A stretch of DNA of 64,000 bases. Origin: Pohlia nutans. Taxonomy: Eukaryota > Streptophyta > Bryopsida > Bryales > Mniaceae. The stretch is from assembly GCA_022496805.1 (NCBI GenBank), contig CM040103.1:2064001-2128000 (forward strand), written 5' to 3'. The notes beneath the pieces are model-generated. The model had not been told where the DNA came from, ran no database searches, and worked only from the letters and a program-made list of their open reading frames with translations. The position numbers were made by a program, and so were the translations under genes. Below, piece after piece: positions 17,109 through 63,632 of the stretch (its first letter is position 1; every line of letters begins with the position of its first letter).

Positions 17109-17555
17109 TCATGAATACAATCGCGTCTTAAGTTCAGCTTCCTCCTTCAACTTCAGTTCAGCTGCTGCCTTCAACATCTGAGGACCACGAGTATAGCCAG
17201 CATATATCGAACATTGTTGTATTGAGATCTCTCGCCTTTGTTGCGCCAACATCCGTTCCTCCCACGCATCTCGAACAGGAGGGGATCTCCTTCTGAAAAA
17301 TTCGTCGTGCGACTGAGTCTGTCGAAGCCCCTCGTTCAATGAAGGGTGTCGAGTACGCAACAGAGCACGAAGAGGCACATCAACACGGGGTAGGGTAGGT
17401 GGAGGCGCGACAGTTGATTGCCCGATAGGTTTCGTAGATTGCCGGTTCGGTTTCGAAGAAGCCCGAGGGCGTGGCAACGGCAGAACTTTCAAAGGGGAAG
17501 ATGCGGAACATGGTGTAGGATTCACAGCCCGAGAGTCAGAACCATTCGTTTTCAA
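17109..17555 (-). CDS. Locus A terminal exon, basic proline-rich tail
   Basis: The open frame ends at a stop at 17109-17111. It begins SP/PR-rich (SASSPLKVLPLPRPRAS, similar in style to the previous exon) and ends in a charged helical stretch (LKAAAELKLKEEAELKTRL). The strongest acceptor (CTGCAG, exon starting 17569) would cause an immediate stop in phase 0. A weaker AAG acceptor gives a start at 17555 that keeps the frame. The 5' border is therefore uncertain. Confidence 0.45.
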   Translation of the reverse strand: MKTNGSDSRAVNPTPCSASSPLKVLPLPRPRASSKPNRQSTKPIGQSTVAPPPTLPRVDVPLRALLRTRHPSLNEGLRQTQSHDEFFRRRSPPVRDAWEERMLAQQRREISIQQCSIYAGYTRGPQMLKAAAELKLKEEAELKTRLYS

Positions 17556-17674
17556 CTTGATTTCTCCACCTGCAGACTACATCCAAGTAACAGACGTATG
17601 AGTATATGAGAATGTCTCATGACAATAAAAGCATGAGATGCAAGAAATAAATGAATATTTAACTTCACGCGCAC

Positions 17675-18245: not shown

Positions 18246-19113
18246 GTGTGATTCTATGACTAACACTGCGATGCAAGCATCCACAATAGAACTACTAAAT
18301 CCATCATCGACGAATTGACTGATCCGACATTAGAGTCTTGGAGTTCTCTATGGCGGTCATGAGTTCATCATATTCTTGCGTATCGGGCTCCTCAATGAGC
18401 ATCCGACGCCCAATGTTATCTTCCCGGCGGAAAGACAGCAAGCCCTGACCTCGGCACTGATGCAGCCGTTGGATCCAAGGGAGGAGCTCGTCAACCAAGA
18501 ATCTATCAGCAGCATGATGTTGCGACCACGACATGGGCAGAACAACATTCTCTGGTTCATTAAGGACGTGCTTCTCACGGCTATCGTCTACGATGATGGT
18601 GTTTGAAGAGCTAAACTTGGAATTCTGGGGTGCAAACAGTTTGTCCAAGGGCTTGAGGAATAAGTCCTTGTTGGTCCCCTTGACTTTCAGAATGGACAAC
18701 TTATTCCGCACTCCACGATACTTGATAACATCGCAGGAATCCTGCCCCATTATATGCAACGGGGGCTGTAGACCCCTAAATAAGTATTCGCAAATCAATT
18801 TAGTAGTGGTAGTCGCCATGGAACTCCATACGGAGACATATGCGACAAGCGATAACTCACGAAGGAAATCAAAGCAGTGCGGACGAACGTAGACGGCCTT
18901 GGGACCAACCACCGCCGGTAGAACAGAAGAATGGGCATGCGAGATGTCATTATACACTTGGTCCTTGGCCATGTGTCTCCGATCCAGACAGACACAGAGA
19001 ATACCATTGAGATCGAGAATGACATTGAGCCATCTCCCTACCGCACTGGATACAAACGCATGATCGACAGGCTCCACTGCGGCACCTACCCCACTGTGCG
19101 ATAGACTGGTCCC
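18246..19113 (-). CDS. Locus A exon: FCP1/SCP-like HAD phosphatase domain
   Basis: The acceptor is CTGAACAG|GGG and the donor CAC|GTGAGT. The residues carry the FCP1-homology signature: VILDLNGILC (motif I, normally hydrophobic-DxDx-T/V), YVRPHCFDFLREL, VSVWSSM (motif II) and TIIVDDSREKH (motif IV). The second aspartate of DxD is asparagine, a change seen in many plant SCP-like homologs that is expected to weaken or abolish phosphatase activity. The domain would act on phosphoproteins or as a binding module. Near 18325 the frame shifts by one base: the upstream frame ends at TGA 18304-18306, while the downstream frame (QFVDDGFSSSIVDACIA) continues to the donor. Confidence 0.7.
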
Positions 19114-19283
19114 CTGTTCAGAAGGGGGAGAGACAAATGTGCAAACAGTTAAGGACTGCACTGACACATTTTTGACTGACCCAAGTCATTGCAAAACGAA
19201 TACGAAATCCCAACGAAGATAAAAAATCAAACGCAGAATCGCCGAATGAAACAGAACAGTTTGCCTTGAACATGATGACTTAC

Positions 19284-20732: not shown

Positions 20733-21028
20733 CTGGAGTATGAAACAAAATAGCATTAGAGGTTGGTAATTGAAAGAGACTTGTCATTAAAGTCAATACC
20801 TGGACAGTTCAACTCGATTCGAGTTGAAAGTTCAACTCTACACTATTGAAGACACGGTAAGCAGATCCTAAGACAGAATTGATTTAACTCGACTCGAGTT
20901 GAATCTCTCCAACAGTCAAATGTTGATCAGACAGTGTTTAACTCGACTCGAGTTGAATCCAACATAGAGATAATTATAGAAGGACTATTCAACTCGACTC
21001 GAGTTGAATGAGTTGGTTTGGTGAGTAC

Positions 21029-22400
21029 CCAAGCAGCACACGACAGTTTCCCACCACCAAACACGGTCAGCACTGCGTCCCCTTCCTTGCAAAAAAGGTC
21101 TAATAGCTTCAAGTAGAATTCCATTCGCAGCTCCGTGTTGTAAATCCGGTACTCCAATTCGTTGTAACCACCTGGAGTGGTAAATACCGTCGTTAATGGA
21201 GCCTCAAACAAATTGGGGAGGTTCTTGCGCCTAATCCTCAGTCCCTTCTTGAACATGTAGATAATCTGCACATTAGTGTGTGCACGCTTGCTGGTCGCGG
21301 GATGATCCTCTAACCGCTCATATTTTTCCGGAACATAATCAGCAAACTCGAGAGTGTAGTTATCTCCATATTCGGAAGCGTGAAGGTGAGGCAAAATTTT
21401 TGCCTGTGCCACTTTGTCACTTCAGATCCATACCCATACGGGGAGTTTAAAAACGTCGGAATCGTCGATCCCTGAGAGCACGGAGAGCACGGAGAGCACG
21501 TTGTAAAAGTACGGTGAGTCATTTGAAGACCCTGCTTGTTCAAGCGCACCAGGGAGATTTCTGAAGTCCATAATGGCCACCTTAATCCTCTTGGCGGTCG
21601 TCTCATCCGATGCGTCTGTGGTCCATTCTCCCAGGAACATCCTCATCCAAATTATAGGGCCTGTAGTATGCATTGCCCTTGGGAATCTGAAACTTTCCCT
21701 TGTTGACGAGGAACACCTTGAAGAATTCATTAGCATAGGGAGACATATCCTCAATGCTCTTGTTCTTATTGTGCGGAAGTTTGGCGGCTGTGAAGTAGTC
21801 CTCTCCAAGAGCAGATAGCAGGACATTGAGAGCAGCTTTTGTGATTCGGAACTCCGCCTTAAAACGCTTCCAGCTGTCCTTCTTGAATTCGCCGCTGGAG
21901 CTGTAAAGGGCGAACTCTGGCCGCATGCTGTGAATCTGCCTCTTCACAATGGTCTTCCTCTTGCATCTCTCCAGCCAATCCTTGTAGCTGTAGCAGTTAG
22001 GATGCACACCCTTGATCTGTTTCATCGTGACTTTGGGGTAGTACTCCTTCCTTTTGGGGTCTGGCCTATTGAGCAGGTACTCGGCAAACCTCTTTAGTTG
22101 TGCTTCGTTCAAGTTCCCCAACCACTTGAAGAACTCTCGGGTCATGACTCCATCCTTCTCCGGATTCCAACTGTTGAGTTCCTTAAACTTCTTCCCCGTA
22201 TCAGGATCCATGAGTTCCCCCTGAGAGCATGCGGAAATAAGCTCGCTCCACAGGCTGTACACCTCCTCGGACGCGGTGATGATCTTCAGCTCGTTGTGAA
22301 GAGCCAGCTCCTGCTCTCTTGGCTTCTTCCCGCTCAATGCTTTCTGGGTCTTCTTTACGTCTATCAGTGCAAAGCGAAGTTTCACCGCGTCCTGGAATTC
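21029..22400 (-). CDS. Locus A exon: family core and N-terminal methyltransferase-like half
   Basis: The acceptor CACAG|GAATTC and donor TGG|GTACTC define the exon. The first part (EFQDAVKLRF onward) aligns with the short second exon of locus D (AFTDAVVQRF). The middle is lysine-rich. The last part carries VAIMDFRNLP in the place of the catalytic DPPY-type motif IV, and later DAVLTVFGGGKLSC in the place of the FxGxG cofactor motif I. Motif IV before motif I is the beta-class order (as in CcrM-type enzymes). Neither motif is canonical, so activity is doubtful. Reading the whole exon needs one base skipped near 21630 and passage over TGA at 21422-21424. Confidence 0.6.
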
Positions 22401-22555
22401 CTGTGGCATTCAATACACGAGTACGCGGATCAGTAAAACAACTCAAATCGAGTTAAACAGTTTTGTCTGTCTATCCCGGGCTTAACATTAATTGAGCGTA
22501 TGACCAACTCAAACTGAACACATTCAACTCGATTCGAGTTGAACTTTATGATTAC

Positions 22556-23991
22556 TTTGTATTTCTCTGCATCTTCCAGTTGCTTCTTTGTTCTCTTAGC
22601 GGGTAAGGCCCTGCCAACTTCTGTAGCCGCCTTCAAAGGTGTTGGACATTTGAGGCTTTTCCACACTGCACGAGCGCCTATGATGTTCGTGGCCCACGTC
22701 GGATTGAAGTTTTGAAAATGGTTCACCCGGTTGTAGTATGCAGAAATTTTTCTTAGGATGGACTTGTCGTCATTCCACACGATGAAGCACTCCCACTTCT
22801 CGAACTTGTCTTTGATCTTCTGACTGATCTCAGGCCTTGTTCTCATATGCTTTGAAGCTTCCACGCTGTGCTGGCCGTTGATCATATAGAATTGTCCATC
22901 CTTGATCTCCTCCCAGCTGCGCGGTTTAACCTTAAAATCCTTGGGGATTGCGCACAGTGTGAGTTTTTTATCCTTGTCCGGCATCTCGACAAGAAAATAC
23001 ATTACTTGCTCCACCTTTCTCTGCTCCAGGCTACAAACATTGAGCTCTGCAAGGGGAGTCAGCAGCTGATCGATGGAAATCTCAAACGACTTTTCGATCC
23101 CCCAGATGTACGAGTCGGTGCATTGCGACCAGTAGTTCTCGTACACCTCCATGGAGGTCTTGTAGTCAGTTTTTTTCTTGTCGTAATCTGTTGGAATGTC
23201 TGTCAGTGTTGATTCCATGCTTAATTCTCCTTGGTGAGATGGCTGACCTTCATCTGCTAAAAGGGACTTCCGCGTTTGGATCGCCCTCAAGTTTCTAGGG
23301 GTCGCCAGTGTCATGGGGGTCTGCGATGCGGAAGGTTTTTGTTTCTTGTTCCCACTCGTCCTAGTGTTAGGGGTTTCAAACAGCAAGGATTCCTGGCTTC
23401 CACCCTGGCTACTAAGTTCCCTGCTCAAATGTAATGGCTTCATCTGCTTCCTGGTGACGTCGAGCTTCATCTTGTACATCTCAAGAGCTGTCAGCAGACT
23501 CCTCAAACGCGGTGCAAGGATATGCGCAGGGTGCTGGTCCCCGATTGCAGTCTTATACCGATAAGTATCAGCGTGAGCCTCCACATCCTTTGCGAGGCTC
23601 TCAAAATCTGTGTCCTTAAGGCTGGCAATGTGTGGAGTTATGTTGAAGGGAGTCTTCTCCGGCTCCATCATGTACGTGAAGCGGTAGTCGTGGTCAGTCC
23701 CTTCATCACGGACCACGCTCGTGACGCAGACGTAGCCTTTCGGACCAGGGGCTACATCCACGACCTCCTCGTATAGGGATACTAGTAGAGTGGGATCGCA
23801 GTTCTTGTATTTTTTTATTAGTGCCAGCTTCTCAGCGTTGGGAACTAGAGTTAGGCTCCACCACTCGACGTTCTCCGGGTCCTGAAACTCCCAACACTCG
23901 CCATGGGTAACCTCGTCGCCAAATGGTACTCCATCATCGCCGGTTTGTTCGAACCGCTTGAAGAAGGCTGCAAGCCGAGCTTGTTGGTTCT
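22556..23991 (-). CDS. Locus A exon with ParB-like domain
   Basis: The exon begins after an AG acceptor at 23992-23993 and ends at AAA|GTAATC (donor at 22555). It encodes about 478 residues. Its C-terminal half has the ParB/sulfiredoxin-fold signature: W-E-E-I, then INGQHSVEAS, where bacterial ParB has a GEHR-A-type motif. Between the N-terminal part (CWEFQDPENVEWW) and this domain is a low-complexity serine- and lysine-rich linker. It is clearly homologous to the ParB-like exon at 40845-42272, which shares WEEI, INGQHS and the same 3' splice phase. No ATG in this exon is an obvious start, so it is probably not the first exon. Confidence 0.7.
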
Positions 23992-25240
23992 CTGCGTTTG
24001 AACCAAATAATACTATGAATTAGTTGTTTTTTCTACAAAATTTCATTATTGATTCCTGGATTTCAACTCGAATCGAGTTGAATATGCTTGCAACATTGTT
24101 TCATTCTGGGCTATTTACTGATATTTAACTCGACTCGAGTTGAATGTAAGTAATTGATTCCTTATAGAAGTTTGTAATTAAACATTCAATACAGGAATAC
24201 CTAACGAGTTTATATTGTTTCATTAAATTAAAACCTTTAACTCGAATCGAGTTAAATATTTTTATCAAGTTGTTAACTGCGGAAATGACATTCGTGTGTC
24301 TCCAGATCATTCATTTGTGTATTAGGAAATTCAACTCGATTCGAGTTGAATTACCTGATATGGAATTCGTTTATTTTTTACTGGATTTTCTTTTAGCTCT
24401 GTCTGTTTGTATCTTGATATTCAGATTTTTTCAATTTTTTACGTATAGAGTTTGATCTATTTAGTCCATTTAACTCGATTCGAGTTGAATTATATGGATC
24501 CTTTTGATGTTTGCGAACGATTCAACTCGAATCGAGTTGAATATTATGAATGGAATGCAACTCGATTTGAGTTTACTTGATCTATCTACATCTGGATCCG
24601 TTTTTGGATCTACTTAGTGCTTGAATTTCTGCATTTTAAGTATATTGTTTTATCGAAGATGTACATTTAACTCGATTCGAGTTAAATTGTGTGGTGTATG
24701 CTCGAGCAATTCAACTCGAATCGAGTTGATTATTGGTAATAAGTCTTAGTTTTAGGTGCAAATGATTATTTAGAGCAGGAAATTCAACTCGAATCGAGTT
24801 GAATTGATCTATTTACCTCTTGTTCCTATCGTAAACGTCTATATACTTAGCTCCGTATTTAGGTCAAGTCGAGTTAAAATTACGACGTTGAGATATATTT
24901 TTGGGTGCATGTCGAGTTGAATTGATATCGAGTTGAATGTTTCTCGAGTTAAATTCATATAATTCTTTCAGAATACGTATTTCTATTAGTTCAGATTTCC
25001 TAGTTTTAATTTATGAGTGCAGAAAATCAACAATAACACTGATTTCCATATTAGGCAATGCTGCAACTTCAGATTTCACATGCACAGTGCATTTGTTCAA
25101 ATGGTGTGTAATCTTACTGCTACAATGAAAAAAAACACGCCATACGTTTCACAGTACAAACATGCAGCAAACGAGAAAACCATAAGTGATCTAACAAGCG
25201 CAAATAATCATACACCCTATCTACAAAGTACTAATAATAC
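23992..25240. other. Non-coding stretch dense in palindrome family 1
   Basis: This AT-rich sequence upstream of the ParB-like exon has at least ten family-1 palindromes in its first 0.8 kb, and isolated half-sites (TCGAGTTGAA) near 24.9 kb. It is probably a long intron or the 5' flank of locus A. I find no coding exon in it. Confidence 0.5.
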
Positions 25241-30317: not shown

Positions 30318-30447
30318 CTGCAAAAAGAAAACCTTTGTCAGTACAGGTGAGCAAGAACCAGTTGTGCGGAAATCTAACAACTATGTGTATCTTCAAATTC
30401 CGCCTGGCATGATAACCATATCTTCTGAGACACTGAAGCACATATCG

Positions 30448-31100
30448 TCACGTCGACGACACGAGATTACTCGCTATGGAATTTAAGTCTCGCCATGAGA
30501 TATGATCACCCAACAATAAAAACATGATCGTCATTAGGCCACACTCAGCATCAAAAGGAATCATCTACCCGACGATAAGTACGGGTGATACAGAAATTTA
30601 TTTTTTCTCAAATAATCACCGTCTGCGGAAAATAATATTCAGTATTTCGAATATAATTCTGACGCACTACGAGAGAATGTCGGGTCAATTAGTAGTTGGA
30701 ATATATCGTCGGACAGATAATATTTAGAAGGGAATCGTTGACCCGACGATATGTCTATACGGGTATTCATCGATTTCCGTGAATGCACTAGATTATGGCC
30801 AGAGGATATACCACTGATAGCGGATAATATTGTGATACTAATTAGGCTATCGTGGGGTCAACGATTACATTAATTGTTCAGCTATCACGCTTACTGGCAG
30901 GATTATCGTTGACTCGACGATAACACAGAAGAAGACGACAAGTTAATGGTAGTGGACATGTTATCGTGGGGTCGACGATAAATTGAATTATTTCTTATCA
31001 TGCTTACGAGCGTAGTAATCGTTAACCCGACGATAACATGTTGCACAGCTAGTTATGTATAAAATCTACGTTACAGTTGGACCGACGATAACAATGACAT
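30448..31100. repeat. Degenerate dispersed copies of palindrome family 2
   Basis: About eight diverged copies of TATCGTCG-N3-CGACGATA occur at irregular spacing (for example near 30735, 30849, 30902, 30960, 31018 and 31075), upstream of the transposase-like gene. They grade into the regular array that follows, suggesting the array grew from one of them. Confidence 0.7.
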
Positions 31101-31126
31101 TCCGATACAGTACAATTATTATATCA

Positions 31127-31735: not shown

Positions 31736-31844
31736 AGGAAATTAGTTTAGACACTGTGGTCCACGCGAGATCATTTAACTGACGACAGCCTTAGTAAATA
31801 AGAGTTACAAATTGACCGAAGTGTTATCGTCGACCCGACGATTC

Positions 31845-42314: not shown

Positions 42315-42378
42315 ATCGCGACAGCTACTGATACAACCGTTCACTTGAATTCTAATGTTTCATGTCTTTGTTGTGCAG

Positions 42379-49788: not shown

Positions 49789-49793
49789 TCACC

Positions 49794-50051
49794 TATTGAG
49801 GTAATTGATGCAACGTAGTATTGCTAGAAGCCAAAGACGATCGGGTGCTAAATAATGGTGTGTGGGAGGAGGGGTTAGGCATGGGCTGATCTCTAGAGTG
49901 TCCTTGTGATGAGTTATCCCATATGGTTTGTCCATGGTGACCTCCTAGTGTACACTACTTAAGGTGGAAGGCCTTTGAGTAAAGATCATCTCTTTCTACG
50001 CATTCCTTGTGTTTGTGTGTGTGCCTTGTGCAATCTTCTCTACCTTCAATA
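49794..50051 (+). repeat. 5' LTR of copia element 1
   Basis: 258 bp starting TATTGAGG and ending CCTTCAATA (short inverted ends TATTGA/TCAATA around the usual TG...CA). Flanked on the left by TCACC, a word present in the satellite monomer. Confidence 0.9.
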
Positions 50052-50065
50052 GGTTATGGGCCCAC
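50052..50065 (+). other. Primer-binding site complementary to the middle of initiator tRNA-Met
   Basis: GGTTATGGGCCCAC starts immediately after the LTR. Its complement GTGGGCCCATAACC is the anticodon stem-loop of plant initiator tRNA-Met (anticodon CAT), not the 3' end. This is the half-tRNA priming known for copia-group elements. Confidence 0.75.
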
Positions 50066-50876
50066 TCATGTGTGTTTCATGAGTATTAGATTGCATTTGT
50101 GCAAGTATTTTGAGGTCGGTGCGCAACGGGCGGTTTCGGAGCATTGTTGGAGGTTTTGGAGCTTGTTGAAGCGTTGGTGTTTCTTGGAGGTGTGCATGGG
50201 CTGAAGTTACATGTTGGAGCACTCTCTTTGGTCAATTTCTTCCCTTGATCTCCTTCTTTTCTTTCTTCTATCTCTTCGTTGCGAGTGGAACTTCGTTTGG
50301 TTCAATTGTGAGCATTTGAGTAAATGCAAGTGATTTGTGAGGTGTGAAGGCTCTCGTGGAGGGTCTACCATCTGATCCTAGTGATTAGGCACTTGCTTTG
50401 AGGTGTTGCATGTGTTTCATGCTCTTGGGGTGCTCAAATTTTCATTTGGAGCTAGTTTGTGCACAAAAGTGCGGTTTTGAGCAATTTCAATGCGATTGGG
50501 GTTTTGAGGGACTTGTGTGAGTTCATGTGCATTGAGTGAGTGCTCTTGAAGGACACAAAGGTGTCATTGACGTGCATTGAGTGTTTGGGGACACTAAGGC
50601 GTCGTATTGAAGCATTTGGAGTTGTTTTGAGCTCCATTGAGTGATTTGAGGGGTTTTGGTGAGCCTCTTTGCATTTTTGGGTGAGGGTTCTCACATTTGA
50701 GTGTTGGGAGGCGTGTGTGGAGCACAAAAGTGCTGATCTAGTGTTTGGGGTTGTTTTAAACCCATTGGGTGCACAAAGGTGCAATATCAAAGCAAAAAAA
50801 AAAAATCACAAAAACAAAGTTGTGTGTTTGAGTTTGAGGTTTCATTTGTGTGGGGAGGCATACGTAAGTGAGGATC
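50066..50876 (+). other. Untranslated leader of copia element 1
   Basis: About 0.8 kb between the primer-binding site and the gag-pol ATG, G/T-rich with repeated GAGTGATTTGAGG and CACAAAGGTG type words. It has no long open frame on the plus strand and ends in an A9-type run just before the coding region. Confidence 0.6.
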
Positions 50877-53800
50877 ATGGCATCTTTTGAGGGTGAGGGT
50901 CCCAAGGTCGTGGACAAGTTCGATGGGGTGAATTTCCACTTGTGGAAGTTCAAAATGGAGATGGTGATGGCCGAGAAGGAGTTGTGGGAGATTGTCGAGG
51001 GTAGTGAGGAACCTCCTTTCTCTTCTACGGATCCTAGGATCATGCAAGCGTACACGAGGAGGGAGAAGAAGGCATTTGCCATTTTGGCACTCAACCTCGC
51101 GGATTCGCAACTTGCGCACATTCGTTCGTGCAAGACACCCGCGGAAGCATGGTCCAAGCTTTGCAACATTCACGAAGCGAAAACATTGGCCAACATTTTG
51201 TTTTTGAGGCGCAAGTTCTTCACCATCAAGATGGGCGAAGAAGATGACATGTTGGCGCACATCAACAAGGTCAAAGCTCTCGCGGATCAACTCAACGGTT
51301 GCGACGTGTCGGTTACGGATGGTGACATCGTGATGACACTTTTGGAGAGCCTTCCATCATCATACGAGTACCTCATCGTGGCGATGGAGTCAAGACCCAT
51401 TACGGAGCTCACATTGGACTATGTGACCTCACGGTTGTTGCACGAGCTTTCGCGGCGAAAGGAGAACGAGTCTCGAGAAGATGGAGCGGCACTCGTGGCG
51501 AAGCAATCCAAGAATGGAGGCGGTGGGAGCTCAAGCAACAAGGTGTGCTTCTATTGTGGTAAGAAGGGCCACATTGCCAAATTTTGCTTCAAACGCAAGA
51601 GGGATGAGAAAGGGGAGAGTGCAAACAACACTAAAACTCGTGACGATGATGAGTACGCATTTACGGCTAGATATGAGGCAAGCATGAGCGATGGCATCGA
51701 GGGTGATGCAAGCATGAGTGATGGTATCGAGGGTGATGCAAGCATGAGTGATTGGATTGAGGTTGGTGATGAGTATGCAAACATGGCAAGCAATGTATCG
51801 TGCAATGGTAGTACGAGTGATTGGATTGTTGATTCGGGGGCTACAAGCCACATGTCACCACATAAAACTTGTTTTCATTCGTATGCTCTCATTAATCCAA
51901 GGAGAGTGATTTTGGGAGATGATACGGTGCTTGAGGCCGTTGGCAAGGGCCAAATTGTTGTAGACACCGAGGTGAGGGGTCGTGTGAAGACAATCACTAT
52001 CAAAGATATCCTCCACGTTCCCAAACTAACGGCAAATTTACTATCGGTGAGGCAACTAGTGGCAAAGCACTTGAGAGTAGAGTTTAGTGATAAGGGGTGT
52101 TATGTGTTGTCACCGAGTCGAGATGAGGTGGCCATCATTGAAGAACACGAGGGCTTGTACCACATCAAGTTCTCCAAGGTGCATTCGAAGGAATCGGCGG
52201 CGTTGGCGCATTCAAACTTGAAGGACGACAAGTTGGCGTTGTGGCATCGTCGACTTGGCCATTTGAACATCAAGAGTGTGAAGACACTACGCGGCATGGT
52301 AAGCGGTATGGATCTTCATCAATTGAAAGTGGATGCTTCTACATTCACGTGTGAAGGTTGCATTGAAGGCAAGCAACAACGGTTGCCATTTGCGGGTGAA
52401 GGGGCGACACGGGCCACAAAAGTTTTGGAGATCGTGCATTCGGATGTGTGTGGCCCCATGAAGACCACATCGATGGGAGGTTGCAAGTACTTTGTGACCT
52501 TCATCGATGATTTTTCAAGGAAGATATGGCTCTACCCTATCAAAGCCAAGAGTGAGTGCTTTGAGAAGTTCAAGGAGTTCAAGACATTGGTGGAGAACCA
52601 ATCCGAGTTGAAGATCAAGGTGTTTCGGTCGGACAATGGCGGCGAGTACATGTCCAAGAAATTTGACGAGCTTTTGAAGAATGAAGGCATTGCACGCCAA
52701 ACTTCGGCCCTGTACACGCCTCAACAAAATGGAGTTGCGGAGCGCGCAAATCGCACCATTGTAGAGATGGCGAGGAGCATGTTGCACGCTCAAAACTTGA
52801 AGTTGGACCTTTGGGCGGAAGCGGTGGTGAATGCGGTATACACACGCAATCGGTGTCCAACAAGCGCGGTTGAAGGCATGACGCCGGAGCAAGCGTGGAG
52901 TGGGAGGCAACCATGTGTTGCACACATGCGCATCTTCGGATGCATTGCATATGCGAAGGTTCCCGACGAACGGAGGACGAAACTCGAGGCTAAGGCCTTG
53001 AAATGTGTGTTTCTTGGGTATTGTGAAGGTACCAAGGCGTATAGACTCATGTCGGTGGACACGAGGAAGATCATTCGGTCACGTGATGTGACATTTTGTG
53101 AGGAGTCTACGATGGAGGCTCCTTTGGAGGTTGGTCCAAGTGGGAGTAGTGGAGACGTTTTGGTGGACACACCCTCCAAGTCTCCTAGTGTTGTTGATGT
53201 AGGTGATGATGACGGTGATGACGAAGATGGCGACACGGAGGTTGTTGAAGCGCCATCGAGCTCAAAGGCCAAGAATGGCGCAAAGGGCACGCAAGAGGAG
53301 CAAGTTTCTTCAAGCGAGCGGCGGTACCCCGAGAGATCGCGCAAGCCACCTGGAGAATGGTGGAAGAACCACATCTTCCCTCAAGTGGAGGACGAGCATG
53401 CGAATGTGGCATTATCGGATGGTCCATTGACCATTCGAGAAGCCATGCAAGGTGAGGATGCGGTCAAGTGGGAGCGCGCCATGCAAGAGGAGTACGACTC
53501 TCTAATTGCTAACGGTACGTGGCAATTAACTCCCATTCCAAAGGATCGCAACCCCATTGGTTGCATATGGGTGTTTCGGACAAAGAGGGATGTTTCGGGT
53601 ATTGTTGTGCGTCACAAGGCAAGATTAGTAGCCAAGGGGTTCGCGCAAGTGCATGGGGTGGACTTTCACGAGACATTTGCTCCCGTGGCCAAGTTCACCA
53701 CCATTCGATGCATTCTTGCCATTGGAGCGGCCTTGGACTTGGAGATGCATCAAATGGATGTGAAGACCGCATTTTTGAATGGCGATTTGGAGGAGGACAT

Positions 53801-55022
53801 CTACATGGTGCAACGTGAGGGGTTTGTGCAACAAGGTAAAGAGCACCTTGTTTGTAAGTTGCAAAAATCATTGTATGGGTTGAAACAATCTCCAAGAGCG
53901 TGGTACCAAAAGATTGACACGTTCTTGCTTGCACACGGGTTTACTAGGAGCATTGCGGATCATAGTCTCTACTTCATGCAAGAGGGGCAACATGTGGTGA
54001 TTGTGATCATATATGTTGATGATTTGATCATTCTTGCAAGCCTCATGAGTTTAATGAATGCATTAAAAGGCATGCTTGAGAGAGAGTACGAGATGAGTGA
54101 TCTTGGAGAATTGCACTTTTGTCTTGGTGTTGAGTTTGTGCGTGATAGGGCTACACGCACTATCACCATGAGTCAAGGCAAGTATGTGATGGACGTGCTC
54201 AAGAGATTCGGGATGGAGGATTGTAAGCCCGTGGCAACACCATTGGATGCAAACTCCAAGCTCGTCAAGCTTTCGGAGGAGGAGTATGCGATGGAGGCTA
54301 AATCGATGGGGGAGGTGCCATACAAGCAAGCGGTGGGGTCGTTGATGTATGCGATGATTGCGACACGGCCCGACCTTGCGTATCCAATTAGCGTGGTGAG
54401 TCAACACATGGCGAGACCGGGCTCGATGCATTGGATGACGGTCAAGAGGATCATGCGTTATTTGAAGGGCACAAGCGATGTGAAGTTGTGTCTTGGAGGC
54501 AAAGACATTGTGTTGAGCGGCTATTGTGACGCGGACTACGCGGGAGACACGAGCGATCGAAGATCGACAACGGGCTACATGTTCAAGGTCGGATCGGGAG
54601 CGGTGTCGTGGAATAGCAAGCGGCAACAAACGACGGCGACATCAACGGTGGAGGCCGAGTACATGGCTACGAGCCATGCCACGAAGGAGGCCATTTGGTT
54701 GAGGCAACTAATGGTGGATGTGGGTTGCACACAAGGTGAGGCTACAACGATTATGTGTGACAACCAAGGGTGCATTTCACTTGCAAAGAACCCTACACAT
54801 CATTCACGCACGAAGCACATTGATGTGCAATATCACTTCATTCGGGAGAAGTTGGAATTGGGAGTTATACATTTGGTGTATTGCCCAACGGAGCACATGG
54901 TGGCGGATGTGCTCACAAAGGGTCTTTGTAGAGACCGACACCAACGATTAGTAATAGCATTTGGACTTAGAGGTTTTGGCTCTACGCAAAGTGGGAGTAT
55001 TGAGGTAATTGATGCAACGTAG
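50877..55022 (+). CDS. Copia gag-pol polyprotein (1,381 aa), intact
   Basis: ATG at 50877 (context ATCATGGCATCT) opens a frame ending at TAG 55020-55022, just inside the 3' LTR. The domains in order are: gag with a UBN2-type core (about residues 1-200); CCHC zinc knuckle CFYCGKKGHIAKFC (about 223); aspartic protease WIVDSGATSHM (about 318); pre-integrase zinc finger LWHRRLGH...CEGC (about 453); integrase catalytic residues in HSDVCGP (about 521), RSDNGGEY (about 585) and QNGVAERANR (about 621); reverse transcriptase from WVFRTKRD to IIYVDDLIILA (about 1046); and RNase H GYCDADYAGD (about 1215) with VEAEYMA. All catalytic motifs are present, so it could be autonomous. The proteins act in cytoplasmic virus-like particles and, for integrase, in the nucleus. 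Confidence 0.95.
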   Translation: MASFEGEGPKVVDKFDGVNFHLWKFKMEMVMAEKELWEIVEGSEEPPFSSTDPRIMQAYTRREKKAFAILALNLADSQLAHIRSCKTPAEAWSKLCNIHEAKTLANILFLRRKFFTIKMGEEDDMLAHINKVKALADQLNGCDVSVTDGDIVMTLLESLPSSYEYLIVAMESRPITELTLDYVTSRLLHELSRRKENESREDGAALVAKQSKNGGGGSSSNKVCFYCGKKGHIAKFCFKRKRDEKGESANNTKTRDDDEYAFTARYEASMSDGIEGDASMSDGIEGDASMSDWIEVGDEYANMASNVSCNGSTSDWIVDSGATSHMSPHKTCFHSYALINPRRVILGDDTVLEAVGKGQIVVDTEVRGRVKTITIKDILHVPKLTANLLSVRQLVAKHLRVEFSDKGCYVLSPSRDEVAIIEEHEGLYHIKFSKVHSKESAALAHSNLKDDKLALWHRRLGHLNIKSVKTLRGMVSGMDLHQLKVDASTFTCEGCIEGKQQRLPFAGEGATRATKVLEIVHSDVCGPMKTTSMGGCKYFVTFIDDFSRKIWLYPIKAKSECFEKFKEFKTLVENQSELKIKVFRSDNGGEYMSKKFDELLKNEGIARQTSALYTPQQNGVAERANRTIVEMARSMLHAQNLKLDLWAEAVVNAVYTRNRCPTSAVEGMTPEQAWSGRQPCVAHMRIFGCIAYAKVPDERRTKLEAKALKCVFLGYCEGTKAYRLMSVDTRKIIRSRDVTFCEESTMEAPLEVGPSGSSGDVLVDTPSKSPSVVDVGDDDGDDEDGDTEVVEAPSSSKAKNGAKGTQEEQVSSSERRYPERSRKPPGEWWKNHIFPQVEDEHANVALSDGPLTIREAMQGEDAVKWERAMQEEYDSLIANGTWQLTPIPKDRNPIGCIWVFRTKRDVSGIVVRHKARLVAKGFAQVHGVDFHETFAPVAKFTTIRCILAIGAALDLEMHQMDVKTAFLNGDLEEDIYMVQREGFVQQGKEHLVCKLQKSLYGLKQSPRAWYQKIDTFLLAHGFTRSIADHSLYFMQEGQHVVIVIIYVDDLIILASLMSLMNALKGMLEREYEMSDLGELHFCLGVEFVRDRATRTITMSQGKYVMDVLKRFGMEDCKPVATPLDANSKLVKLSEEEYAMEAKSMGEVPYKQAVGSLMYAMIATRPDLAYPISVVSQHMARPGSMHWMTVKRIMRYLKGTSDVKLCLGGKDIVLSGYCDADYAGDTSDRRSTTGYMFKVGSGAVSWNSKRQQTTATSTVEAEYMATSHATKEAIWLRQLMVDVGCTQGEATTIMCDNQGCISLAKNPTHHSRTKHIDVQYHFIREKLELGVIHLVYCPTEHMVADVLTKGLCRDRHQRLVIAFGLRGFGSTQSGSIEVIDAT
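54988..54997 (+). other. Polypurine tract of copia element 1
   Basis: AAAGTGGGAG lies directly before the 3' LTR (TATTGAGG), the usual plus-strand primer of plant copia elements. It overlaps the end of the gag-pol frame. Confidence 0.8.
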
Positions 55023-55255
55023 TATTGCTAGAAGCCAAAGACGTACGGGTGCTAAATAATGGTGTGTGGGAGGAGGGGTTAGGCATGGGCTGATCTCTAG
55101 AGTGTCCTTGTGATGAGTTATCCCATATGGTTTGTCCATGGTGACCTCCTAGTGTACACTACTTAAGGTGGAAGGCCTTTGAGTAAAGATCATCTCTTTC
55201 TACGCATTCCTTGTGTTTGTGTGTGTGCCTTGTGCAATCTTCTCTACCTTCAATA
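54998..55255 (+). repeat. 3' LTR of copia element 1
   Basis: 258 bp, matching the 5' LTR of element 2 at the diagnostic GACGTACGG site rather than its own 5' LTR. It is followed by ATCCC and then satellite in minus orientation. Confidence 0.9.
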
Positions 55256-55680
55256 ATCCCAGGGTCAAGGTTTCACAATGAGTACTCGTCACGTACGAGC
55301 TGGGGTGTGAGTCGTGAGGGAGAATTCTCGAACTTGCTGGGGCGTGGGATAGGCGTCGTGGCCGAGGCCTATATCCCAGGATCAAGGTTTCACAATGAGT
55401 ACTCGTCACGTGACGAGCTCGAGTGCGTGGTGAGTGGAGAATTCTCGAACTCGCTAGGGCGTGGGATAGGCGTCGTGGCCGAGGCCTATATCCCAGGGTC
55501 AAGGTTTCACAATGAGTACTCGTCACGTGACGAGCTCGGGTGCGTGGTGAGTGGAGAATTCTCGAACTCGCAGGGGCGTGGGATAGGCGTCGTGGCCGAG
55601 GCCTATATCCCAGGGTCAAGGTTTCACAATGAGTACTCGTCACGTAACGAGTTCGGGTGCGTGGTGAGGGGAGAATTCTC
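55256..55680 (-). repeat. 117-bp satellite, inverted middle block (about 3.6 monomers)
   Basis: This is the same monomer as the flanking arrays but read on the minus strand, for example TCAAGGTTTCACAATGAG and CGTCACGTGACGAG with GAGAATTCTCGAAC. It is trapped between the two copia elements and is the only satellite in this orientation here. Confidence 0.93.
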
Positions 55681-55683
55681 CAA

Positions 55684-57541
55684 CTCCATTTTGTTGAGGC
55701 GTGTACAGGGCCGAAGTTTGGCGTGCAATGCCTTCATTCTTCAAAAGCTCGTCAAATTTCTTGGACATGTACTCGCCGCCATTGTCCGACCGAAACACCT
55801 TGATCTTCAACTCGGATTGGTTCTCCACCAATGTCTTGAACTCCTTGAACTTCTCAAAGCACTCACTCTTGGCTTTGATAGGGTAGAGCCATATCTTCCT
55901 TGAAAAATCATCGATGAAGGTCACAAAGTACTTGCAACCTCCCATCGATGTGGTCTTCATGGGGCCACACACATCCGAATGCACGATCTCCAAAACTTTT
56001 GTGGCCCGTGTCGCCCCTTCACCCGCAAATGGCAACCGTTGTTGCTTGCCTTCAATGCAACCTTCACACGTGAATGTAGAAGCATCCACTTTCAATTGAT
56101 GAAGATCCATACCGCTTACCATGCCGCGTAGTGTCTTCACACTCTTGATGTTCAAATGGCCAAGTCGACGATGCCACAACGCCAACTTGTCGTCCTTCAA
56201 GTTTGAATGCGCCAACGCCGCCGATTCCTTCGAATGCACCTTGGAGAACTTGATGTGGTACAAGCCCTCGTGTTCTTCAATGATGGCCACCTCATCTCGA
56301 CTCGGTGACAACACATAACACCCCTTATCACTAAACTCTACTCTCAAGTGCTTTGCCACTAGTTGCCTCACCGATAGTAAATTTGCCGTTAGTTTGGGAA
56401 CGTGGAGGATATCTTTGATAGTGATTGTCTTCACACGACCCCTCACCTCGGTGTCTACAACAATTTGGCCCTTGCCAACGGCCTCAAGCACCGTATCATC
56501 TCCCAAAATCACTCTCCTTGGATTAATGAGAGCATACGAATGAAAACAAGTTTTATGTGGTGACATGTGGCTTGTAGCCCCCGAATCAACAATCCAATCA
56601 CTCGTACTACCATTGCACGATACATTGCTTGCCATGTTTGCATACTCATCACCAACCTCAATCCAATCACTCATGCTTGCATCACCCTCGATACCATCAC
56701 TCATGCTTGCATCACCCTCGATGCCATCGCTCATGCTTGCCTCATATCTAGCCGTAAATGCGTACTCATCATCGTCACGAGTTTTAGTGTTGTTTGCACT
56801 CTCCCCTTTCTCATCCCTCTTGCGTTTGAAGCAAAATTTGGCAATGTGGCCCTTCTTACCACAATAGAAGCACACCTTGTTGCTTGAGCTCCCACCGCCT
56901 CCATTCTTGGATTGCTTCGCCACGAGTGCCGCTCCATCTTCTCGAGACTCGTTCTCCTTTCGCCGCGAAAGCTCGTGCAACAACCGTGAGGTCACATAGT
57001 CCAATGTGAGCTCCGTAATGGGTCTTGACTCCATCGCCACGATGAGGTACTCGTATGATGATGGAAGGCTCTCCAAAAGTGTCATCACGATGTCACCATC
57101 CGTAACCGACACGTCGCAACCGTTGAGTTGATCCGCGAGAGCTTTGACCTTGTTGATGTGCGCCAACATGTCATCTTCTTCGCCCATCTTGATGGTGAAG
57201 AACTTGCGCCTCAAAAACAAAATGTTGGCCAATGTTTTCGCTTCGTGAATGTTGCAAAGCTTGGACCATGCTTCCGCGGGTGTCTTGCACGAACGAATGT
57301 GCGCAAGTTGCGAATCCGCGAGGTTGAGTGCCAAAATGGCAAATGCCTTCTTCTCCCTCCTCGTGTACGCTTGCATGATCCTAGGATCCGTAGAAGAGAA
57401 AGGAGGTTCCTCACTACCCTCGACAATCTCCCACAACTCCTTCTCGGCCATCACCATCTCCATTTTGAACTTCCACAAGTGGAAATTCACCCCATCGAAC
57501 TTGTCCACGACCTTGGGACCCTCACCCTCAAAAGATGCCAT
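55684..57541 (-). pseudogene. Truncated copia gag-pol frame (element 2)
   Basis: ATG at 57541 opens the same protein as element 1 for about 619 residues: gag, zinc knuckle, protease, pre-integrase and integrase up to the region of the third catalytic residue (TPQQNGV). The frame then runs into satellite sequence and stops near 55640. Reverse transcriptase and RNase H are lost. Confidence 0.9.
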
Positions 57542-58366
57542 GATCCTCACTTACGTATGCCTCCCCACACAAATGAAACCTCAAACTCAAACACACAACT
57601 TTGTTTTTGTGATTTTTTTTTTTTGCTTTGATATTGCACCTTTGTGCACCCAATGGGTTTAAAACAACCCCAAACACTAGATCAGCACTTTTGTGCTCCA
57701 CACACGCCTCCCAACACTCAAATGTGAGAACCCTCACCCAAAAATGCAAAGAGGCTCACCAAAACCCCTCAAATCACTCAATGGAGCTCAAAACAACTCC
57801 AAATGCTTCAATACGACGCCTTAGTGTCCCCAAACACTCAATGCACGTCAATGACACCTTTGTGTCCTTCAAGAGCACTCACTCAATGCACATGAACTCA
57901 CACAAGTCCCTCAAAACCCCAATCGCATTGAAATTGCTCAAAACCGCACTTTTGTGCACAAACTAGCTCCAAATGAAAATTTGAGCACCCCAAGAGCATG
58001 AAACACATGCAACACCTCAAAGCAAGTGCCTAATCACTAGGATCAGATGGTAGACCCTCCACGAGAGCCTTCACACCTCACAAATCACTTGCATTTACTC
58101 AAATGCTCACAATTGAACCAAACGAAGTTCCACTCGCAACGAAGAGATAGAAGAAAGAAAAGAAGGAGATCAAGGGAAGAAATTGACCAAAGAGAGTGCT
58201 CCAACATGTAACTTCAGCCCATGCACACCTCCAAGAAACACCAACGCTTCAACAAGCTCCAAAACCTCCAACAATGCTCCGAAACCGCCCGTTGCGCACC
58301 GACCTCAAAATACTTGCACAAATGCAATCTAATACTCATGAAACACACATGAGTGGGCCCATAACC

Positions 58367-58624
58367 TATTGAAGGTAGAGAAGATTGCACAAGGCACACA
58401 CACAAACACAAGGAATGCGTAGAAAGAGATGATCTTTACTCAAAGGCCTTCCACCTTAAGTAGTGTACACTAGGAGGTCACCATGGACAAACCATATGGG
58501 ATAACTCATCACAAGGACACTCTAGAGATCAGCCCATGCCTAACCCCTCCTCCCACACACCATTATTTAGCACCCGTACGTCTTTGGCTTCTAGCAATAC
58601 TACGTTGCATCAATTACCTCAATA
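58367..58624 (-). repeat. 5' LTR of copia element 2
   Basis: 258 bp, identical in layout to the other LTRs. It carries the GACGTACGG variant shared with the 3' LTR of element 1, and is flanked on the outside by satellite in plus orientation (GGGATATAGGCC). Confidence 0.9.
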
Positions 58625-58629
58625 GGGAT

Positions 58630-61600
58630 ATAGGCCTCGGCCACGACGCCTATCCTGCGCCCCTGCGAGTTCAAGAATTCTCCCCTCACCACTCACCCCA
58701 GCTCGTACGTGACGAGTACTCATTGTGATTCTTAGCCCCTAGGATATAGGCCTCGGCCACGACGCCTATCCCACGCCCCAGCGAGTTCGAGAATTCTCCC
58801 CTCACCACTCACCCCAGCTCGTCACGTGACGAGTACTCATTGTGAGACCTTGACCCTGGGATATAGGCCTGGGCCACGACGCCTATCCCACGCCCTAGCG
58901 AGTTCGAGAATTCTCCCCTCGCCACTCACCCCAGCTCGTCACGTGAGAAGTACTCATTGTGAAACCCTGATCCTGGGATATAGGCCTCGGCCACGACGCC
59001 TATCCCACGCCCCACCAAGTTTGAGAATTCTCCCTCACTACTCACACCCCAGCTCGTACGTGACGAGTACTCATTGTGAAACCTTGACCCTGGGATATAG
59101 GCCTCGGCCTCGACGCCTATCCCACGCCCTAGCGAGTTCGAGAATTCTCCACTCACCACGCACCCGAGCTCGTCACGTGACGAGTACTCATTGTGATACC
59201 TTGACCCTGGAATATTGGCCTCGGCCACGACGCCTCACCCATGCCCCAGCAAGTTCGAGAATTCTCCCTCACCACTCACACCCCAGCTCGTACGTGACGA
59301 GTACTCATTGTGAAACCTTGACCCTGGGATATAGGCCTCGGCCACGACGCCTATCCCACGCCCCAGCGAGTTCGAGAATTCTCCCCTCACCACTCACCCC
59401 AGCTCGTCACGTGACGAGTACTCATTGTGAAACCTGGACCCTGGGATATAGGCCTGGACCACGACGCCTCACCCACGCCCCAGCAAGTTCGAGAATTCTC
59501 CCTCACCACTCACACCCCAGCTCGTACGTGACGAGTACTCATTGTGAAACCTTGACCCTGGGATATAGGCCTGGGCCACGACGCCTATCCCACGCCCTAG
59601 CGAGTTCGAGAATTCTCCACTCACCACTCACCCCCGCTCGTCACGTGAGAAGTACTCATTGTGAAACCCTAATCCTGGGATATAGGCCTCGGCCACGACG
59701 CCTATCCCACGCCCCACCAAGTTTGAGAATTCTCCCTCACTACTCACACCCCAGCTCGTACGTGACGAGTACTCATTGTGAAACCTTGACCCTGGGATAT
59801 AGGCCTGGGCCACGACGCCTATCCCACGCCCTAGCGAGTTCGAGAATTCTCCCCTCGCCACTCACCCCAGCTCGTCACGTGAGAAGTACTCATTGTGAAA
59901 CCCTGATCCTGGGATATAGGCCTCGGCCACGACGCCTATCCCACGCCCCACCAAGTTTGAGAATTCTCCCTCACTACTCACACCCCAGCTCGTACGTGAC
60001 GAGTACTCATTGTGAAACCTTGACCCTGGGATATAGGCCTCGGCCTCGACGCCTATCCCACGCCCTAGCGAGTTCGAGAATTCTCCACTCACCACTCACC
60101 CCAGCTCGTCACGTGACGAGTACTCATTGTGAAACCTTGACCCTGGGATATAGGCCTCGGCCACGACGCCTATCCCACGCCCCTGCGAGTTCGAGAATTC
60201 TCCACTCACCACGCACCCGAGCTCGTCACGTGACGAGTACTCATTGTGATACCTTGACCCTGGAATATTGGCCTCGGCCACGACGCCTCACCCATGCCCC
60301 AGCAAGTTCGAGAATTCTCCCTCACCACTCACACCCCAGCTCGTACGTGACGAGTACTCATTGTGAAACCTTGACCCTGGGATATAGGCCTCGGCCACGA
60401 CGCCTATCCCACGCCCCAGCGAGTTCGAGAATTCTCCCCTCACCACTCACCCCAGCTCGTCACGTGACGAGTACTCATTGTGAAACCTGGACCCTGGGAT
60501 ATAGGCCTGGACCACGACGCCTCACCCACGCCCCAGCAAGTTCGAGAATTCTCCCTCACCACTCACACCCCAGCTCGTACGTGACGAGTACTCATTGTGA
60601 AACCTTGACCCTGGGATATAGGCCTGGGCCACGACGCCTATCCCACGCCCTAGCGAGTTCGAGAATTCTCCACTCACCACTCACCCCCGCTCGTCACGTG
60701 AGAAGTACTCATTGTGAAACCCTAATCCTGGGATATAGGCCTCGGCCACGACGCCTATCCCACGCCCCACCAAGTTTGAGAATTCTCCCTCACTACTCAC
60801 ACCCCAGCTCGTACGTGACGAGTACTCATTGTGAAACCTTGACCCTGGGATATAGGCCTGGGCCACGACGCCTATCCCACGCCCTAGCGAGTTCGAGAAT
60901 TCTCCCCTCGCCACTCACCCCAGCTCGTCACGTGAGAAGTACTCATTGTGAAACCCTGATCCTGGGATATAGGCCTCGGCCACGACGCCTATCCCACGCC
61001 CCACCAAGTTTGAGAATTCTCCCTCACTACTCACACCCCAGCTCGTACGTGACGAGTACTCATTGTGAAACCTTGACCCTGGGATATAGGCCTCGGCCTC
61101 GACGCCTATCCCACGCCCTAGCGAGTTCGAGAATTCTCCACTCACCACTCACCCCAGCTCGTCACGTGACGAGTACTCATTGTGAAACCTTGACCCTGGG
61201 ATATAGGCCTCGGCCACGACGCCTATCCCACGCCCCTGCGAGTTCGAGAATTCTCCACTCACCACGCACCCGAGCTCGTCACGTGACGAGTACTCATTGT
61301 GATACCTTGACCCTGGAATATTGGCCTCGGCCACGACGCCTCACCCATGCCCCAGCAAGTTCGAGAATTCTCCCTCACCACTCACACCCCAGCTCGTACG
61401 TGACGAGTACTCATTGTGAAACCTTGACCCTGGGATATAGGCCTCGGCCACGACGCCTATCCCACGCCCCAGCGAGTTCGAGAATTCTCCCCTCACCACT
61501 CACCCCAGCTCGTCACGTGACGAGTACTCATTGTGAAACCTGGACCCTGGGATATAGGCCTGGACCACGACGCCTCACCCACGCCCCAGCAAGTTCGAGA

Positions 61601-63632
61601 ATTCTCCCTCACCACTCACACCCCAGCTCGTACGTGACGAGTACTCATTGTGAAACCTTGACCCTGGGATATAGGCCTGGGCCACGACGCCTATCCCACG
61701 CCCTAGCGAGTTCGAGAATTCTCCACTCACCACTCACCCCCGCTCGTCACGTGAGAAGTACTCATTGTGAAACCCTAATCCTGGGATATAGGCCTCGGCC
61801 ACGACGCCTATCCCACGCCCCACCAAGTTTGAGAATTCTCCCTCACTACTCACACCCCAGCTCGTACGTGACGAGTACTCATTGTGAAACCTTGACCCTG
61901 GGATATAGGCCTGGGCCACGACGCCTATCCCACGCCCTAGCGAGTTCGAGAATTCTCCCCTCGCCACTCACCCCAGCTCGTCACGTGAGAAGTACTCATT
62001 GTGAAACCCTGATCCTGGGATATAGGCCTCGGCCACGACGCCTATCCCACGCCCCACCAAGTTTGAGAATTCTCCCTCACTACTCACACCCCAGCTCGTA
62101 CGTGACGAGTACTCATTGTGAAACCTTGACCCTGGGATATAGGCCTCGGCCTCGACGCCTATCCCACGCCCTAGCGAGTTCGAGAATTCTCCACTCACCA
62201 CTCACCCCAGCTCGTCACGTGACGAGTACTCATTGTGAAACCTTGACCCTGGGATATAGGCCTCGGCCACGACGCCTATCCCACGCCCCTGCGAGTTCGA
62301 GAATTCTCCACTCACCACGCACCCGAGCTCGTCACGTGACGAGTACTCATTGTGATACCTTGACCCTGGAATATTGGCCTCGGCCACGACGCCTCACCCA
62401 TGCCCCAGCAAGTTCGAGAATTCTCCCTCACCACTCACACCCCAGCTCGTACGTGACGAGTACTCATTGTGAAACCTTGACCCTGGGATATAGGCCTGGG
62501 CCACGACGCCTATCCCACGCCCTAGCGAGTTCGAGAATTCTCCACTCACCACTCACCCCCGCTCGTCACGTGAGAAGTACTCATTGTGAAACCCTAATCC
62601 TGGGATATAGGCCTCGGCCACGACGCCTATCCCACGCCCCACCAAGTTTGAGAATTCTCCCTCACTACTCACACCCCAGCTCGTACGTGACGAGTACTCA
62701 TTGTGAAACCTTGACCCTGGGATAAAGGCCTCGGCCTCGCTTCCTATCCCACGCCCCAGCGAGTTCGAGAATTCTCCACTCACCACTCACCCCAGCTCGT
62801 CACGTGACGAGTACTTATTGTGAAACCTTGACCCTGGGATATAGGCCTCGGCCACGACGCCTATCCCACGCCCCTGCGAGTTCGAGAATTCTCCACTCAC
62901 CACGCACCCGAGCTCGTCACGTGACGAGTACTCATTGTGATACCTTGACCCTGGAATATTGGCCTCGGCCAGGACGCCTCACCCATGCCCCAGCAAGTTC
63001 GAGAATTCTCCCTCACCACTCACACCCCAGCTCGTACGTGACGAGTACTCATTGTGATTCTTGGACCCTGGGATATAGGCCTCGGCCACGACGCCTATCC
63101 CACGCCCCAGCGAGTTCGAGAATTCTCCCCTCACCACTCACCCCAGCTCGTCACGTGACGAGTACTCATTGTGAGACCTTGACCCTGGGATATAGGCCTC
63201 GGCCACGACGCCTTACCCACGCCCCAGCAAGTTTGAGAATTCTCCCTCACCACTCACACCCCAGCTCGTACGTGACGAGTACTCATTGTGATTCTTGGAC
63301 CCTGGGATATAGGCCTTGGCCAGGACGCCTATCGCGCGCCCCAGCCAGTTCAAGAATTCTCCCCTCACCACTCACCCCCGCTCGTCACGTGACGAGTACT
63401 CATTGTGAAACCTTGACCCTGGGATATAGGCCTCGGCCACGACGCCTTACCCATGCCCCAGCAAGTTTGAGAATTCTCCCTCACCACTCACACCCCAGCT
63501 CGTACGTGACGAGTACTCATTGTGATTCTTGGACCCTGGGATATAGCCCTTGGCCACGACGCCTATCCCGCGCCCCAGCGAGTTCAAAAATTCTCCCCTC
63601 ACCACTCACCCCCGCTCGTCACGTGACGAGTA
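58630..63632 (+). repeat. 117-bp satellite array, right block with 1053-bp higher-order repeat
   Basis: About 43 monomers of 117 bp. Identical sub-blocks recur at exact 1,053-bp offsets (9 monomers), for example 59862, 60915 and 61968, and 59628, 60681 and 61734. This shows a nine-monomer unit amplified about three times very recently. The outer monomers (58.6-59.2 and 62.5-63.6 kb) are more diverged. Each monomer carries the GAGAATTCTC, CTCGTCACGTGACGAG and GAGTACTC palindromes or the one-base-shorter variant of the second. Confidence 0.95.

What the first reader, a model, noticed from the sequence alone, without database searches (positions are those of the whole stretch)
17109..63632. Three ParB-like loci, each associated with its own perfect palindrome family
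Seen: locus A (17-24 kb) has a 10-N-10 palindrome (arm TTYAACTCGA); locus D (40-42.7 kb) has an 8-N3-8 palindrome (TATCGTCG arm); locus C (43.3-47.6 kb) abuts a satellite with CTCGTCACGTGACGAG. In A and D the copies lie only in introns and flanks. Known: ParB proteins bind palindromic parS sites, and ParB-methylase fusions exist in phages and bacteria. Inference: each protein may recognise its own locus-specific palindrome, giving a self-marking selfish element or a chromatin-marking system. For locus C the link is adjacency only, because its introns lack the motif, so that leg is weaker.
Basis: partly seen in the sequence, partly recalled or inferred. Interest (0 to 1): 0.9.

Follow-up and report, generated by a model that had tools for sequence, protein, structure and literature searches.

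The report
Moss transposons bearing coded ParB-like palindromes
A large family of moss jumping genes carries a ParB-like protein together with many copies of a short mirror-symmetric DNA word, and branches of the family have their own versions of the word, which suggests that each element recognises and perhaps protects its own copies.

Summary
Loci A and D confirmed and extended; C not. The window lies in the moss Pohlia nutans. A and D encode homologous proteins (28% identical, same intron position) with a ParB fold and a degenerate adenine-methylase-like part. Word A occurs 19 and word D 36 times in the window (chance 0 and 0.13). All 31 ParB-like loci read (29 from this genome, 2 moss-like contigs) carry such palindromes; 423 of 427 sites score non-coding. 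The word changes with protein clade, with some mixing: TT-NNNN-TCGA-N-TCGA-NNNN-AA, NNNN being CAAC, CAGC, TAGG, ATCG or ATCC. The element's other half is a divergent DUF7869 (transposase-like) gene bearing the same word; window loci B and D are such a pair. Predicted partners were found except one ParB-like gene. Terminal inverted repeats indicate mobility. Best reading: an element-specific DNA-binding protein, most likely a VANC-like anti-silencing factor, less likely a transposition partner or autorepressor; binding is not shown. Self-methylation is disfavoured: the catalytic motif is lost in 16 of 16 copies checked. ParB-methylase transposon proteins are known in algae; I found no report of the clade-specific word code.

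The parts
16768..16792 (+). Terminal inverted repeat at the ParB-side end of element A (AACATCATATTCATTAAAATGAGAG)
   Evidence: First 17 bases exact, after four different outer flanks, in window, L047, L048, L044; same repeat at the DUF7869 end in L050, L054, L058, and facing it in L055
17109..18091 (-). Further open frames of element A downstream of the phosphatase-like gene, function unknown
   Evidence: Open frames; inside the stretch shared with other copies
18304..19185 (-). NLI-interacting-factor (CTD-phosphatase-like) gene of element A
   Evidence: Pfam PF03031 E 9.3e-14; same neighbour in L002 and L056 and read-through in P. patens P0005
19824..20732 (-). Last exon of gene A
   Evidence: tblastn to Ceratodon P0001 residues 877-1057 at 20732-20208
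21026..21640 (-). Methyltransferase-like part of gene A, broken by frameshifts
   Evidence: tblastn to P0001 residues 751-877 at 21409-21026, separate frames
21642..22400 (-). Exon 2 of gene A
   Evidence: 62% identical to P0001 residues 483-736
22401..22555 (-). Intron 1 of gene A with palindromes at 22437 and 22523
   Evidence: Splice reading
22556..24004 (-). Exon 1 of gene A: N-terminal domain and ParB-like domain (NGQH motif)
   Evidence: fold of the homologue P0001
18091..24878 (.). 19 palindromes of word A (TTYAACTCGA-N-TCGAGTTRAA)
27734..30337 (-). Locus B: DUF7869 transposase-like gene, one frame with two in-frame stops (broken copy)
   Evidence: Pfam PF25273 E 1.6e-24 and 3.9e-08; 118 matches genome-wide for its middle piece
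30443..31843 (.). 29 palindromes of word D, mostly a 29-bp tandem array, upstream of locus B
   Evidence: word D also upstream of 3 of 3 other B-type copies looked at (L059, L060, L061)
38075..38537 (+). Stretch shared with the upstream region of other ParB-like copies
   Evidence: blastn 77-81% to the C12, C9 and C23 copies, same orientation relative to the gene
39903..40768 (.). 6 palindromes of word D upstream of gene D
40845..42272 (+). Exon 1 of gene D: ParB-like, 28% identical to A
42273..42378 (+). Intron of gene D with one exact word D at 42295-42313
   Evidence: same position and phase as intron 1 of A; exact word also in this intron of L062
42379..42675 (+). Exon 2 of gene D, ending early at a stop; a copy 96% identical in exon 1 (L062) continues into the methyltransferase-like part
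43698..47566 (-). Locus C: 9-exon gene read by eye as ParB-like plus methyltransferase-like; not part of the finding
   Evidence: Splice model; none of the 7994 candidates scored was a homologue; no palindrome
47810..63637 (.). 117-bp satellite with CTCGTCACGTGACGAG, interrupted by a Copia-like element; unrelated to C as far as tested

Best explanation
These are large moss DNA transposons with terminal inverted repeats (17.7 kb between the repeats at one locus, more than 18 kb at another). One end carries a DUF7869 transposase-like gene, the other a divergently transcribed ParB-like gene, in some copies with a phosphatase-like gene behind it. The ParB-like protein most likely binds, as a symmetric dimer, its own family's palindrome, which is scattered in clusters over the element's promoters, introns and 3' flank, and by coating the element keeps host silencing off it, as VANC proteins do on VANDAL elements of Arabidopsis. 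Protein and word diverge together, so each family frees only its own copies. Shown: element structure, palindrome enrichment, non-coding placement, words that change by clade, ParB fold. Inferred: binding, coating and anti-silencing.
Against: No binding, methylation or expression data. The window copies are broken (frameshifts in A, two stops in B, early stop in D), and so is the ParB-like gene of L056. VANC is a different protein family and its motif is not palindromic. Words are mixed within some loci: L016 has 10 CAAC and 5 CAGC sites, the five typical CAGC loci of this genome also have 3-6 CAAC sites each, and all six TAGG loci have 1-8 CAGC-like sites. CAGC appears on two separate branches of the tree. 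Palindromes at both promoters fit autoregulation just as well.
Confidence: 0.45

Rival explanations
1. Transposition partner: the ParB-like protein binds the palindrome clusters to bring the two ends or two promoter regions together, or to load the DUF7869 protein, so the words are transposase-accessory sites.
For: The two genes lie together in most loci tested and share the word at both sides; ParB proteins bridge DNA (recalled).
Against: Words are not in the terminal repeats but kilobases inside, in introns and promoters; number and spacing vary widely.
Confidence: 0.25
2. Autoregulation: the protein is a repressor or activator of its own and the transposase promoter (copy-number control, as KorB or ParB on plasmids).
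For: Clusters directly upstream of both genes; KorB is among the closest folds.
Against: Also in introns and 3' flanks, many copies per element and tandem arrays; more than an operator needs.
Confidence: 0.18
3. Self-marking by DNA methylation: a ParB-methylase fusion that modifies its own element, as proposed for algal transposons.
For: The C-terminal part resembles N6-adenine methylases in fold (low-confidence model); the same idea is in print for Ectocarpus (PMC12477816, section 5 read).
Against: Motif IV reads DFRx or DAR instead of DPPY in 16 of 16 loci; the SAM-binding motif reads [VI]-[YF]-x-G-x-K in 7 of the 8 loci where it aligned: probably inactive, METTL14-like.
Confidence: 0.08
4. 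The palindromes are passengers, such as hairpin-forming repeats that spread within the element without a protein partner.
For: Some form tandem arrays.
Against: Different words in homologous introns, same architecture across clades, same word at two distant genes, near absence from coding sequence.
Confidence: 0.04

Closest known systems
VANDAL elements with VANC anti-silencing proteins (Arabidopsis, PMC5735166, parts 1-2 of 6 read)
   Same: Transposon-encoded protein; short motif clustered, partly tandem, in introns, upstream and flanking regions; protein and motif diverge together by family; transposase gene in the same element
   Different: Other transposase and a DUF1985 VANC protein rather than DUF7869 and ParB-like; VANC motif YAGTATTAY is not palindromic; anti-silencing shown there, not here
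Sola1-1_Ec32 of Ectocarpus and similar algal transposon ParB-methylase proteins (PMC12477816, section 5 read)
   Same: ParB-like plus methyltransferase-like protein on the strand opposite the transposase in a giant DNA transposon
   Different: Other transposon superfamily; moss catalytic motif degenerate; no element-specific palindrome mentioned in the section read
Bacterial ParB, Noc, KorB with palindromic parS, NBS or operator sites
   Same: Fold of the central domain; palindromic target bound by a dimer (recalled)
   Different: Phosphate-binding motifs replaced (NGQH for GERR, recalled); eukaryotic, intron-bearing, in a transposon
Fungal DNA transposons carrying TET/JBP genes (PMC12730594, passages seen)
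   Same: Transposons carrying an epigenetic accessory gene
   Different: Dioxygenase; no matching motif reported in the passages seen

Membership tests
ParB/Srx-like fold | ParB N-domain fold | tested here: met
ParB | CTP-binding motifs | tested here: inconclusive
   NGQH invariant in the 54-row alignment in place of the usual motif; binding not testable
ParB | Binding of own palindrome | not testable with these tools
   Co-variation only
N6-adenine methyltransferase (beta class) | Fold | tested here: inconclusive
   Foldseek best hits METTL14, M1.HpyAVI, CcrM, MTA1, best E 1.9e-4, but model mean pLDDT 49
N6-adenine methyltransferase (beta class) | DPPY/W catalytic motif | tested here: not met
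   DFRx or DAR in 16 of 16 loci given
[quoted passage not shown]
   Repeat at the ParB end (window, L044, L047, L048) and at the DUF7869 end (L050, L058); both orientations at L054/L055. Both ends of one ParB-bearing copy were not read, and none were found for word D elements
DNA transposon | Target-site duplication | tested here: inconclusive
   One candidate, TTTC, at L054/L055
DUF7869 as DDE transposase | Catalytic triad and activity | not tested
   Pfam match only; superfamily not assigned
VANC/VANDAL | Homology to VANC (DUF1985) and MULE transposase | tested here: not met
   Pfam scan of the A, D and B frames gives no such domain at E up to 1
VANC/VANDAL | Sequence-specific hypomethylation of own copies | not testable with these tools
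   Needs methylation data

The most novel reading that the evidence does not exclude
A four-base 'address' code for self-recognition by selfish DNA: ParB-like proteins with a constant framework (TT....TCGA-N-TCGA....AA) and changeable middle positions load at their own family's palindromes, spread along the element as ParB clamps do, and shield it from host silencing, so that families in one genome run in parallel without cross-talk.
Probability: 0.25. Interest if true: 0.93.

Novelty: new variant of a known kind. Interest (0 to 1): 0.82.

Why it matters
It gives a natural set of homologous proteins with matched, computable target words (five so far) in one moss genome. That makes the evolution of DNA recognition, and a possible second origin of sequence-specific anti-silencing by transposons, directly testable. 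It would also be a eukaryotic use of the ParB-parS principle.

Tried and rejected
Locus C as a third case: it has no palindrome of this kind and the neighbouring word is a satellite unit; its protein found no homologue among the 7994 candidates scored. Relatives in viral contigs: none confirmed. An apparent second terminus in L043/L045/L046 and a partial one in L051 were rejected, because conserved sequence continues beyond the first and the second is a 12-bp match. Terminal repeats of the word-D element were not found; an 11-bp chance-level inverted match at 27441/43089 was not pursued. Reading the C12 and C9 copies (L013, L015) as complete was dropped, as their shared stretch runs off the fetched DNA. 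Never answered: genome-wide counts of word D and of the terminal repeat, and the genome searches with PF02195 and PF25273. The first stretch fetched at 12.17 Mb (L052) was on the wrong side and showed no gene; the right side (L058) was fetched afterwards. At 26.53 Mb the right-hand stretch (L055) held no ParB-like match and the word spacing is mirrored. In the record of L001/L002 the pattern scan with 2 mismatches gave 17 sites, but the backwards control gave 9, so that scan alone is weak. Papers: no hit for DUF7869 nor for ParB with transposase, 6mA and alga; the moss, KDZ, palindrome and Lanisha searches I saw as listings, apart from passages of PMC9247546 and PMC12730594 and section 5 and passages of PMC12477816. 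The algal papers it cites were not held or not looked up.
Full report
WHERE. The window is G000:C19:2064001-2128000 of an assembly of 697,796,988 bases. Contigs C1 (52,153,166) and C17 (30,709,574) have exactly the maximum scaffold length and scaffold N50 given for the Antarctic moss Pohlia nutans (PMC9247546, passages seen), so I take it to be that species.

OBSERVATION. Word A has 19 and word D 36 matches within 3 mismatches, against 0.00 and 0.13 in shuffles. A and D encode homologous proteins (28% identity) with an intron at the same place and in the same phase; each intron holds its own locus's word.

INDEPENDENT LOCI. Two contigs in a cyanobacterial metagenome bin (L001, L002; presumably moss contamination) carry TTCAGCTCGANTCGAGCTGAA in introns and flanks. 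In that record the pattern with up to 2 mismatches has 17 sites, 16 of them on these two contigs and one on a third that I did not examine; the backwards control had 9 sites, whose places are not given. Gene-caller proteins that run into intron 1 show translated palindromes, for instance FNSIRVE or RFSSTRAD in P0003, P0006, P0007, P0025, P0029 (read by eye, not counted over all 53).

GENOME-WIDE. At least 43 loci for the ParB-like protein by my merging of 124 matches (43 of 1663 candidates scored); L053 and L056, found later, are not among them. There are 118 DUF7869 matches to the middle piece of B (117 of 2044 candidates scored). Word A has 1195 exact copies; the backwards control has 0. The 50 listed all lie in four loci on C1. 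All four encode DUF7869 (L049, L054, L057, L058) and three a ParB-like gene (L027, L053, L056, the last rearranged) in the stretches read. The other 1145 were not placed.

WORD AND CLADE. In 31 loci read (21 of clade 1, 6 of the 34%-identity clade, L001, L002, window A, window B+D) I counted 427 sites within 3 mismatches. On the protein tree CAGC words mark one clade in this genome (L018, L020, L021, L022, L028, each with 8-9 CAGC but also 3-6 CAAC sites; L024 has a single site, CAGC; L016 has 10 CAAC and 5 CAGC). CAAC marks the other 14 loci of clade 1 and window A, with no CAGC site save one in L019. TAGG marks the 34% clade (9-13 sites each, besides 1-8 CAGC-like). Word D has its own long branch. 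L001/L002 (CAGC) fall elsewhere on the tree, so CAGC is either old or arose twice. A motif-blind scan for 10-N-10 palindromes returned half-sites TTCAACTCGA, TTCAGCTCGA (this genome), TTCAGCTCGA (L001/L002), TTTAGGTCGA and TTATCCTCGA with 179, 50, 16, 26 and 20 palindromes against about 3.8, 1.3, 0.6, 1.1 and 0.3 expected; the word-D group, whose centre is three unpaired bases, gave 11 against 1.25 and a poorer consensus. The expectation is my simple base-composition estimate, and some loci in these groups are DUF7869 loci. The common frame is TT-NNNN-TCGA-N-TCGA-NNNN-AA, with word D deviating at the centre.

PREDICTIONS TESTED. (1) A second word-A cluster about 7 kb from L027 should front a divergent DUF7869 gene: found (L049, 35-57% identical to B by piece). 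(2) Other word-A cluster pairs on C1 should show the same: DUF7869 found at 3 of 3 (L054, L057, L058), a ParB-like gene at 2 of 3 (L053, L056; not at 26.53 Mb). (3) Other B-type copies should carry word D: 3 of 3 (L059-L061). (4) A ParB-like gene should lie about 10 kb upstream of one of them: found, 96% identical to D in exon 1 and continuing into the methylase-like part, with words in its first intron and further on (L062). (5) A 63%-identical DUF7869 family turned out to have a fifth word (L063, L064); a ParB-like partner should lie about 10-12 kb upstream: found, 45% identical to D over 136 residues, with 10 related words within 2 mismatches beside it (L065; only its start was fetched; several are ATCC/ATCT hybrids).

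MOBILITY. Four copies share a left end AACATCATATTCATTAA after four different flanks. The same repeat closes the DUF7869 side in L050 and L058 and both sides at L054/L055 (17.7 kb apart), where TTTC is a candidate target duplication. No ends were found for the word-D element.

HOW IT WORKS. The pattern is that of VANC/VANDAL (PMC5735166, parts 1-2 of 6 read): clustered words in introns, upstream and terminal regions, beside both genes, diverging with the protein. I therefore favour element-specific anti-silencing (0.45) over a transposition partner (0.25) and autoregulation (0.18). The algal proposal that such proteins modify their own transposon (PMC12477816, section 5 read) is weakened here by the lost motif. 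ParB-type spreading would explain how a few words cover a long element, but is inference.

LIMITS. No binding or methylation data. The window's three genes are broken copies. Counts are lower bounds. Clade and word are shared by descent, so word switches, about five, are the independent events, not the loci. That the code is unreported rests on the paper searches listed under Tried and rejected.

Noticed in passing
47810-63637: 117-bp satellite with 26 exact CTCGTCACGTGACGAG palindromes (core CACGTG), interrupted by a Copia-like element at 50868-55022 and an inverted partial copy at 55640-57550.
   Followed up: partly
43698-47566: Nine-exon gene with GNHR and methylase-like motifs (VDMPE, DCTAITG) read by eye; no homologue in the one protein search; may be a separate ParB-methylase-like gene.
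   Followed up: partly
L001, L002: Moss-like transposon contigs filed in a cyanobacterial bin (AVDCRST_MAG81); another homologue (P0029) is filed as uncultured Leptolyngbya: likely host contamination.
   Followed up: no
L054/L055 (C1:26526352-26544076): Word clusters mirror each other in spacing on both sides, with exact terminal repeats: an apparently inverted-duplicated derivative of the element.
   Followed up: no
18304-19185: CTD-phosphatase-like gene travelling with the ParB-like gene; role unknown.
   Followed up: partly
30443-31843: Word-D array is largely a 29-bp tandem repeat, so words multiply by tandem duplication, as described for VANC targets.
   Followed up: partly
7870-7941: One tRNA gene, minus strand (Rfam).
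   Followed up: no
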